NCBI GenBank assembly: GCA_016219485.1
Contig: JACRMX010000035.1
Location: forward strand, 1-33,235
Source: Candidatus Aenigmatarchaeota archaeon
Lineage (GTDB): Archaea > Aenigmatarchaeota > Aenigmatarchaeia > GW2011-AR5 > JACRMX01
Direction: 5' to 3'
Length of the DNA: 33,235 nucleotides
Part shown: in pieces, positions 3,465 through 23,858 of the stretch
Numbering within the stretch: position 1 is the stretch's first letter
How the letters are laid out: each line of letters starts with the position of its first letter
The notes under the pieces: model-generated
Seen by the model: only the letters and a program-made list of their open reading frames with translations
The model's database searches: none
What the model was told of the DNA's origin: nothing
Position numbers and translations under genes: made by a program

Positions 3465-4517
3465 TTATTTTTCTTCCACGATTTTTATCAGCTTTTTCCT
3501 GAACCTTTCCCAGTCTTCTTTTTTTATCGTGGCACCTGCGGCATTAGCGTGCCCGCCTGCCAAGGCGTCCATACCCCTGCCCGCCTTTTTCAGGATGGCA
3601 GATACGTCAAACCTGTTAGTCTGGTTCCTTGCGCTTATTTTTACGCGGCTGCCGACATTCTGGTATACTACCACAAGCTTGTCTGGAAACATTTCGCTTA
3701 TTTTTGTTGAGATAGGAGAGCGAAGATTATAGGCAGACCTGAGGTTATATAGAATAAGGCCGTGCGTTTTTTCCGAAGATTTCTCAAAGTCTACCATGAC
3801 GCCAGCTATTTCTGTTTCCATCTTTCTATAAGACCCGATAATATCTTCATTTTTCATCAGCTCATCCAGCGAGCCTGATCGTTCTATTATCCTGACAATT
3901 TCCTCTGAGCTGAGTTTCTTGGTCGCTCTCGTTGCAGAAATCATGTTCACGGCTTTTCCGAGCTTCGACTCCAGCAAAGGCTCTCCGGATATGCCAGGAT
4001 ATTTATTCTTTATTTCATTTACAATGTCCATGGAATCGGAAAAATCGTAATCCCCTACAATTCCTATTCCTGCAACCCACAGCCGGTTTTTAATATCAGC
4101 CATTTTTGAGCATATTTTGTACACAAGATATGAGCAGGACTGGTAGACGTCTTTTTCAAATCTAGGATTGTAATGAATTATATTTTTCCCATTAACGTTT
4201 CTGCTTATCTGATGATGGTCTATTATAAGGACATTTGAAAATCCGCTTATTTTTTTAAGCGTCTCCATGTCCTGGTCTATTGCAAGATCCAAAAAAATAA
4301 TTTTGGTTGGCAGTGAAAGCTTTATTTTCTGCAGCAAATTCTTGTCTATAGGCATTGGCTGGGATATGAGGTATGCATCCAGGCCCGGCTGCTTTTTCAG
4401 AAAAATGCTCATGAGGGCTGCGGCAGCTATACCGTCGGCATCGTTATGGAAAATAATAATGAGGTTGTCATCGGTTCCGATAGAATTAAGAAAATCTATA
4501 ACCTTGTTCTCGTTCAT
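3465..4517 (-). CDS. DHH family phosphoesterase (RecJ-like)
   Basis: IIIFHNDADGIAAAALMSIFLKK, DHHQ, C-terminal GRGMDALAGGHANAAGATI (DHHA1). Confidence 0.9.
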   Translation of the reverse strand: MNENKVIDFLNSIGTDDNLIIIFHNDADGIAAAALMSIFLKKQPGLDAYLISQPMPIDKNLLQKIKLSLPTKIIFLDLAIDQDMETLKKISGFSNVLIIDHHQISRNVNGKNIIHYNPRFEKDVYQSCSYLVYKICSKMADIKNRLWVAGIGIVGDYDFSDSMDIVNEIKNKYPGISGEPLLESKLGKAVNMISATRATKKLSSEEIVRIIERSGSLDELMKNEDIIGSYRKMETEIAGVMVDFEKSSEKTHGLILYNLRSAYNLRSPISTKISEMFPDKLVVVYQNVGSRVKISARNQTNRFDVSAILKKAGRGMDALAGGHANAAGATIKKEDWERFRKKLIKIVEEK

Positions 4518-9133: not shown

Positions 9134-9206
9134 GGCTGTGTTGATGTAACGGCTAGCATAAGGGACTGTGGATCCCTTCGTCTGGGTTCGAATCCCAGGC
9201 ACGGCC
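9134..9206 (+). tRNA. tRNA-His (GTG), no intron
   Basis: Anticodon arm AGGGA CTGTGGA TCCCT; T arm CTGGG TTCGAAT CCCAG; G-1:C73 pair encoded. Confidence 0.95.
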
Positions 9207-21408: not shown

Positions 21409-21611
21409 TGCGAGAGGCAGGATTTGAACCTGCGAACGGACTAACCGACAGGATTTCTCTTTCACTCCAGCTCTGCTGGTCAACACTCAAGTAGATAGCG
21501 CCTTCAGGAAGTTTCTCTTTCGTCCAAACCGACAACCTTCGGTTGTCAATTCGCTTTAAAGAGAAAAGGGTTACTTGAGTCCTGCGCCTTTGACCGCTTG
21601 GCTACTCTCGC
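21409..21611 (-). tRNA. tRNA-Leu (CAA) with ~119-nt intron at 37/38 (intron 21455..21573)
   Basis: Acceptor GCGAGAG/CTCTCGC, D arm GCC..GGC, anticodon stem CAGGA/TCCTG, T arm GCAGG TTCAAAT CCTGC; spliced length 84 nt. Confidence 0.85.
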
Positions 21612-22209: not shown

Positions 22210-22312
22210 TGCGGTGGCCGAGATATGCGGCAGGCATAAACTATATGCCGGCTTTCGAACTCGGGTCTCAACCGTGGCAGGGTTGTGTCCTAACCAGCTA
22301 GACTACCACCGC
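22210..22312 (-). tRNA. tRNA-Gly (GCC) with 30-nt T-loop intron (22224..22253, position 59/60)
   Basis: Acceptor GCGGTGG/CCACCGC; anticodon arm CAACC CTGCCAC GGTTG; T arm CCGAG TTCGAA[30 nt]T CTCGG; spliced 73 nt. Confidence 0.92.
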
Positions 22313-23338: not shown

Positions 23339-23514
23339 CGCCGGAAGCAGGATTCGAACCTGCGCTTCCATCCGACTGGCGCAGAGTCGCTTGACGAGCA
23401 AAGCTCGTCGGTTTTTCTCGTTGCGCCAAGGTTTCGGAAACCAGTTTTCGAGACTGGCGCGTTTAACCTGATCGCGGCTGCCTGTTTTTTCAGCACAGTC
23501 TCCGCCATTCCGGC
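23339..23514 (-). tRNA. tRNA-Ser (CGA) with two introns: D-loop 28 nt (23472..23499) and variable arm 62 nt (23370..23431)
   Basis: Acceptor GCCGGAA/TTCCGGC, anticodon arm CCAGT CTCGAAA ACTGG, T arm GCAGG TTCGAAT CCTGC; spliced 86 nt, same as the neighbouring Ser(UGA). Confidence 0.92.
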
Positions 23515-23572: not shown

Positions 23573-23721
23573 CGCCGGGAGCAGGATTTTCGGGCATATC
23601 TTTTCTTCTTTCCCAGGGGTTTCTTCTTTTTCTAAAAGAAGAAAGGCCTTTCGAACCTGCGCACCCCGAAGGGTACCAGCTCTCAAGGCTGGCGCGTTTA
23701 ACCAAGCTCCGCCATCCCGGC
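23573..23721 (-). tRNA. tRNA-Ser (TGA) with 63-nt T-loop intron (23587..23649, position 59/60)
   Basis: Acceptor GCCGGGA/TCCCGGC, anticodon arm CCAGC CTTGAGA GCTGG, T arm GCAGG TTCGAA[63 nt]T CCTGC; spliced 86 nt. Confidence 0.93.
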
Positions 23722-23739: not shown

Positions 23740-23786
23740 TGCACTCAAAGACATTAATATTTTAACATTTGAATGTCTTTGAGTGC
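23740..23786. repeat. Long inverted repeat (16-bp stem)
   Basis: TGCACTCAAAGACATT...AATGTCTTTGAGTGCA upstream of the thiolase gene. Confidence 0.7.
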
Positions 23787-23858
23787 ACCCTGAAGGCATT
23801 ATAATATTTTCAATAATTTATGCCCTTCGGTATACATCAAGCTTTAAAAGTGATCGTA

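What the first reader, a model, noticed from the sequence alone, without database searches (positions are those of the whole stretch)
23573..23721. 63-nt T-loop intron (59/60) in tRNA-Ser(UGA) with a textbook BHB built from the TTCG of the T-loop
5' GCAGG-TTCG-AAA-GGCC...TGCC-CGAA-AAT-CCTGC: outer helix is the T-stem, central 4-bp helix TTCG/CGAA, two 3-nt bulges. Cutting AA|A and AA|T restores the T-arm GCAGG TTCGAAT CCTGC and leaves 86 nt. The intron recruits the invariant T-loop bases as half of its splice motif, so any TTCG T-loop could host such an intron with only CGAA supplied by the insert.
Basis: partly seen in the sequence, partly recalled or inferred. Interest (0 to 1): 0.85.

Follow-up and report, generated by a model that had tools for sequence, protein, structure and literature searches.

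The report
Removable intron in a tRNA's T-loop
A serine tRNA gene in a tiny uncultured archaeon is interrupted inside its most conserved loop by a 63-letter intron that almost certainly is cut out by the standard archaeal tRNA-splicing enzyme; such introns are a known kind, but this lineage uses the T-loop site unusually often, which fits the site being a universal landing pad for hopping introns.

Summary
Confirmed. Minus strand 23721..23573 is tRNA-Ser(UGA) with a 63-nt intron at 59/60 (23649..23587). The BHB is strict: T-stem, central helix UUCG/CGAA, two 3-nt bulges. Splicing gives an 86-nt tRNA that ARAGORN accepts. The genome is a 75%-complete Aenigmatarchaeota (DPANN) MAG in which nearly every tRNA is interrupted: about 47 introns in 24 resolved genes. 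Twenty T-loop introns were found in two genomes without using the central helix; sixteen have a perfect 4-bp helix (background 0.3% per offset). Base 57 covaries with its intron partner (G-C 8, A-U 9, no cross-overs, p=4e-5). Position and mechanism are already known. Notable: 13 of 24 genes are interrupted in this loop; one Leu(UAA) gene parses with four introns; intron sequence is shared between different tRNAs and sites (Ser 59/60, Thr 37/38, Glu 59/60), implying transposition; relatives' EndA is a single ~190-210-aa M. jannaschii-like subunit without the CSL/ASL loop tied elsewhere to intron-rich tRNAs. EndA and RtcB are absent from this incomplete MAG but present in most relatives. No splicing was shown. 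Side finding: the intron family carries a purine mirror repeat also found after stop codons.

The parts
23650..23721 (-). tRNA-Ser(UGA) 5' exon, 72 nt (acceptor 5' strand to A59)
23587..23649 (-). 63-nt T-loop intron between positions 59 and 60
23573..23586 (-). 3' exon, 14 nt (T60, T-stem 3' strand, acceptor 3' strand, discriminator G73)
23683..23685 (-). anticodon TGA (ARAGORN position 37-39 of the spliced tRNA)
23652..23655 (-). central helix 5' strand = T-loop bases T54 T55 C56 G57
   Evidence: sequence
23589..23592 (-). central helix 3' strand CGAA, supplied by the intron
   Evidence: sequence
23649..23651 (-). 5' bulge A58 A59 | A (cut after A59)
   Evidence: sequence; standard BHB rule
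23586..23588 (-). 3' bulge A A | T60 (cut before T60)
   Evidence: sequence; standard BHB rule
23646..23648 (-). inner helix GGC, pairs with GCC at 23593-23595
   Evidence: sequence; (3 inner pairs)
23601..23644 (-). intron-family core: Y tract 23644-23634, loop, R1 23630-23620, linker CCCCTGGG 23619-23612, R2 (mirror of R1) 23611-23601
23339..23514 (-). neighbouring tRNA-Ser(CGA), interrupted twice (D-loop 28 nt 23499-23472; variable arm 62 nt 23431-23370)
22210..22312 (-). tRNA-Gly(GCC) with a second 59/60 intron (30 nt, 22253-22224; intron strand CGCA, 3 of 4 central pairs)
21409..21611 (-). tRNA-Leu(CAA) with a 119-nt insert at 37/38
9135..9206 (+). tRNA-His(GTG), the only uninterrupted tRNA gene resolved in this genome

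Best explanation
It is a functional tRNA-Ser(UGA) gene of an Aenigmatarchaeote with an archaeal BHB intron at 59/60. In the transcript the T-stem stays paired as the outer helix, T-loop bases U54-G57 pair with CGAA near the intron's 3' end to form the 4-bp central helix, and splicing endonuclease (EndA) cuts both 3-nt bulges (AA|A and AA|U). A ligase, by established archaeal biology RtcB, then joins A59 to U60. Because UUCR is nearly invariant at 54-57, an intron ending YGAANN fits almost any tRNA, which can explain why this site is so often occupied here and why the same intron family recurs in unrelated tRNAs. Shown by sequence: the anatomy, covariation at position 57, the restored tRNA, and shared intron families. 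Inferred: actual cleavage and ligation, EndA and RtcB in this very organism, and intron movement.
For: Strict BHB at the exact place. Spliced product accepted as tRNA-Ser(tga), as are 55/55 spliced tRNAs from two genomes with sensible anticodons; with the introns outside the T-loop left in, only 9 calls result. In 20 T-loop-interrupted genes found without using the central helix, 16 have a perfect helix and 19 have at least 3 of 4 pairs, against 0.3% perfect at other offsets; base 57/partner G-C 8, A-U 9, no cross-overs, Fisher p=4e-5. The orthologous Ser(UGA) gene is intronless in G048, interrupted at 37/38 in G008, in the T-arm near 54 in G017, and at 59/60 in G023, so exons are kept while introns come and go. 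Relatives have EndA (55/60 genomes) and RtcB (27/30). Shared intron sequence: 54 intron pairs from different tRNAs reach a score that dinucleotide shuffles reach 0-1 times; Thr 37/38 and Glu 59/60 introns are nearly identical over 54 nt from the first intron base.
Against: No RNA data. EndA and RtcB were not found in the window's own MAG, which is only 75% complete. MFE of the full precursor is 5 kcal/mol below the enforced BHB cloverleaf. 4 of 20 T-loop introns depart from a perfect central helix (Gly, His, Leu-UAA, G016 Ser-GCU).
Confidence: 0.93

Rival explanations
1. The gene is a pseudogene or an insertion-damaged tRNA, and the BHB is a coincidence.
For: No expression data; a MAG; EndA and RtcB not recovered in this genome.
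Against: All stems of the spliced tRNA are intact; the insert has a perfect BHB at the exact joint; the same arrangement recurs in 13 genes of the genome with covariation; nearly every tRNA gene here is interrupted, so they cannot all be dead.
Confidence: 0.03
2. The insert is removed by another route (self-splicing, or as a permuted or trans-spliced arrangement).
For: 59/60 is also the joint of permuted tRNAs in Thermofilum (PMC3218864).
Against: The two exons are in normal order on one strand; no Rfam intron family matches the stretch even at permissive threshold; 63 nt is far too short for a group I intron (general knowledge).
Confidence: 0.02
3. The high frequency of 59/60 introns reflects shared ancestry in each tRNA rather than movement between tRNAs.
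For: Several relatives across families have 59/60 introns in Ser tRNAs.
Against: Ser(UGA) orthologues differ in having an intron at all and in its position; near-identical intron sequences occur in different tRNAs and at different positions within this genome.
Confidence: 0.2

Closest known systems
Archaeal tRNA introns with strict BHB (hBHBh'), canonical site 37/38
   Same: 4-bp central helix, two 3-nt bulges, cut after the second bulge base, loop bases of the exon form one side of the central helix
   Different: Sits in the T-loop (59/60), not the anticodon loop
Permuted tRNAs of Thermofilum pendens and C. merolae type IV, joint 59/60 (PMC3218864, PMC3978253)
   Same: Same joint, BHB-type motif built on the T-arm
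   Different: Here the exon order is normal and the insert is an ordinary intron
T-arm intron of C. merolae tRNA-Ile(UAU), 53/54 (PMC9602550)
   Same: BHB intron within the T-arm of a multi-intron tRNA
   Different: Different position, eukaryote
Intron-rich tRNA sets of Thermoproteales and of Atabeyarchaeia/Freyarchaeia (PMC8450103, PMC11291895, PMC4390854)
   Same: Most tRNAs interrupted, multiple introns per gene; intron transposition reported for Thermoproteales (Fujishima 2010, cited therein)
   Different: DPANN lineage; a Leu(UAA) gene that parses with four introns against reported maxima of three; very frequent use of 59/60; EndA of relatives is a single M. jannaschii-like subunit without CSL/ASL

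Membership tests
Archaeal BHB tRNA intron | Removal restores a standard tRNA | tested here: met
   ARAGORN tRNA-Ser(tga), 86 nt
Archaeal BHB tRNA intron | Two 3-nt bulges separated by a 4-bp helix, flanked by outer and inner helices | tested here: met
   central 4/4, outer 4+, inner 3 pairs; position-57 covariation across 17 introns
Archaeal BHB tRNA intron | EndA in the organism | tested here: inconclusive
   absent from this 75% complete MAG; present in 55/60 relatives
Archaeal BHB tRNA intron | Cleavage and ligation observed | not testable with these tools
   no RNA data
Permuted tRNA (joint 59/60) | 3' half encoded upstream of 5' half | tested here: not met
   normal order on one strand
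Homotetrameric (alpha-4) EndA in the group | Single N-domain + catalytic-domain gene, no second subunit, no CSL/ASL insertion | tested here: met
   186-210 aa genes, colinear with M. jannaschii 1a79 except a 6-residue basic loop before the catalytic His, as in N. equitans alpha 3iey_A; one gene in most genomes of the order. In relatives only; the window's own EndA was not found
Homotetrameric (alpha-4) EndA in the group | Forms a homotetramer and is limited to strict BHB motifs | not testable with these tools
   needs biochemistry
Group I intron | Conserved catalytic core (Rfam model) | tested here: not met
   no match in cmscan at permissive threshold

The most novel reading that the evidence does not exclude
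The T-loop UUCR is a universal landing pad for a mobile intron family in Aenigmatarchaeota. Introns ending YGAANN hop between unrelated tRNAs and between 37/38, D-loop and 59/60, and a strict single-subunit EndA tolerates this because the motif, not the position, is what it reads. The family carries a three-tract element (pyrimidine tract, complementary purine tract, then a purine tract that is the mirror image of the first) which also sits just after stop codons of mRNAs, so it may be a dispersed structured RNA, possibly triple-stranded, that colonised tRNA genes.
Probability: 0.25. Interest if true: 0.8.

Novelty: new member of a known kind. Interest (0 to 1): 0.52.

Why it matters
The single intron is ordinary in kind. 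The setting is not: a DPANN lineage in which about 95% of resolved tRNA genes are interrupted, often in the T-loop, and whose EndA (from relatives) lacks the CSL/ASL loops that have been linked to non-canonical introns in other archaea (PMC6379350, PMC12397907). If strict-BHB enzymes can support so many non-canonical positions, the proposed co-evolution concerns motif relaxation, not intron position. Standard tools miss most of these genes: Rfam finds 3 tRNAs in the whole genome, where the intron-aware parser resolves 24.

Tried and rejected
A first parser setting with too low an intron penalty split inserts into many small introns; raised. L042 +1129 could not be resolved and is left out of the 24 genes. 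Arg(UCG) has two possible 5' ends (2 or 3 introns). Nested (intron-in-intron) readings of the long D-loop and 37/38 inserts score well but are not needed; left open. One relaxed scan timed out and was rerun with tighter limits for G016. Several relatives' Ser loci were not resolved by the parser. No paper on tRNA introns in Aenigmatarchaeota was found in the held library, which lacks most subscription journals, so earlier reports of ordinary 59/60 introns in archaea may exist beyond those cited. Phage records: no match.

Full report
What was checked. The minus strand 23721..23573 reads as a complete tRNA-Ser(UGA) with a 63-nt insert in the T-loop between positions 59 and 60. ARAGORN and Rfam at gathering score miss it (18.9 bits unspliced). 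With the insert removed ARAGORN calls tRNA-Ser(tga) over all 86 nt.

Setting. The window is contig C54 of a 650,667-bp MAG, 75% complete. Rfam finds only 3 tRNAs in the genome and low numbers in many relatives. An intron-aware parser resolved 24 tRNA genes, 23 of them interrupted, with about 47 introns; in G016 30 genes, 28 interrupted, 52 introns. All 55 spliced sequences (G016's Cys gene appears twice because stretches overlap) are recognised by ARAGORN with sensible anticodons. Leu(UAA) at L036 -5874 parses with four introns (D-loop, 37/38, variable arm, T-loop 58/59). Boundaries of D-loop and variable-arm introns are less certain than those of T-loop introns.

Test of the central helix. 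T-interrupted genes were picked by acceptor, T-stem and cloverleaf score only. In 20 such genes 16 have a perfect UUCR/YGAA helix; at other offsets in the same introns a perfect match occurs in 0.32%. When base 57 is G the partner is C (8 of 8 with C or U), when it is A the partner is U (9 of 9); Fisher p=4.1e-5. The two genomes are related and two Glu introns are near-duplicates, so the sample is smaller than 20 independent events, but the two pair types occur within one genome in unrelated tRNAs.

Turnover and movement. Ser(UGA) orthologues in relatives are intronless (G048), or interrupted at 37/38 (G008), in the T-arm near 54 (G017), or at 59/60 plus the D-loop (G023), with conserved exons. 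Within the window's genome, introns of different tRNAs share sequence far beyond shuffles: Thr(CGU) 37/38 and Glu 59/60 agree over 54 nt from the first intron base, Glu(CUC) and Gly(CCC) D-loop introns over 52 nt, and Ser(UGA) 59/60 belongs to the same family as Thr and Glu. Intron transposition is known in Thermoproteales (Fujishima 2010, cited in PMC4390854 and PMC3218864); movement here is inferred from similarity only.

Enzymes. EndA is present in 55 of 60 relatives, in the order usually as one gene. Four examples of 186-210 aa align colinearly with homotetrameric M. jannaschii EndA and show no CSL- or ASL-like insertion; they have a 6-residue basic loop before the catalytic His, as in N. 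equitans alpha. RtcB is present in 27 of 30. Neither was found in the window's own MAG; incompleteness is the simplest reason. [quoted passage not shown] Here most introns parse with a perfect central helix (35 of 47 in this genome), although the parser itself favours that outside the T-loop.

Comparison. 59/60 is a known joint of permuted tRNAs (PMC3218864, PMC3978253), T-loop BHB motifs are known (PMC6379350), and intron-saturated tRNA sets are known from Thermoproteales (71 introns in 46 genes of Pyrobaculum calidifontis, PMC8450103) and Atabeyarchaeia/Freyarchaeia (92-95% of genes, PMC11291895). The case is therefore a new member of a known kind in a lineage for which no report was found in the held papers.

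Side finding. The intron family core has a pyrimidine tract, a complementary purine tract, a short linker whose start pairs with bases before the pyrimidine tract, and a second purine tract that mirrors the first. A 9-nt scan finds 6 and 13 mirror sites in the two genomes against 1 and 0 for direct repeats; in this genome 4 of 6 lie in tRNA genes, which are 0.8% of the sequence, and many others start a few bases after a stop codon. Shuffling tracts among 22 elements never reaches the observed mirror match or linker pairing, but those elements were chosen for a high mirror score. The geometry would suit a purine-motif triple strand; this is speculation.

Noticed in passing
window 23644..23601 (-); L020 13412 (-), L032 1959 (+), L031 11180 and 2305 (-), L040 9705 (+); many sites in G016 loci L122-L171: Dispersed element: pyrimidine tract, complementary purine tract, linker (CCCYTGGG or CGTNNACG) whose start pairs with bases just upstream, then a purine tract that is the mirror image of the first. 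Found in tRNA introns and within a few bases after stop codons; mirror sites 6 and 13 against direct-repeat control 1 and 0.
   Followed up: partly
L036 5874 (-), 263 nt: tRNA-Leu(UAA) that parses with four introns (D-loop 21, 37/38 25, variable arm 27, T-loop 58/59 105 nt); published maxima cited here are three.
   Followed up: partly
L072 3421-3446 and about 3531-3546: Two extra copies of the 3' end of tRNA-Ser(GGA) (GCAGGTTCAAATCCTGCTCCCAGCGCT and CCTGCTCCCAGCGCT) lie downstream of the gene at 2707, like remnants of integrations at the tRNA 3' end.
   Followed up: no
window 23740-23755 and 23772-23787: 16-bp inverted repeat (TGCACTCAAAGACATT / AATGTCTTTGAGTGCA) between the tRNA-Ser(UGA) gene and the divergent PP-loop protein gene at 23820.
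   Followed up: no
G005, G017, G018, G019, G021, G022, G027, G029 RtcB genes: RtcB matches are split by a long in-frame insertion (open frames up to about 1000 aa), probably inteins, in the very ligase that joins tRNA exons.
   Followed up: no
L008 11242 (+) and L004 1425 (-): Glu(UUC) and Glu(CUC) genes share a 108-nt 59/60 intron differing by very few bases, a recent duplication or copying.
   Followed up: partly
L027 10353-10612 (+): Further likely interrupted tRNA gene (GGGCCTGTAGCTCAGCCTGGTAGAGC ... TTCGAATCCCGTCGGGCCC) with a probable T-arm intron before T54; not parsed.
   Followed up: no
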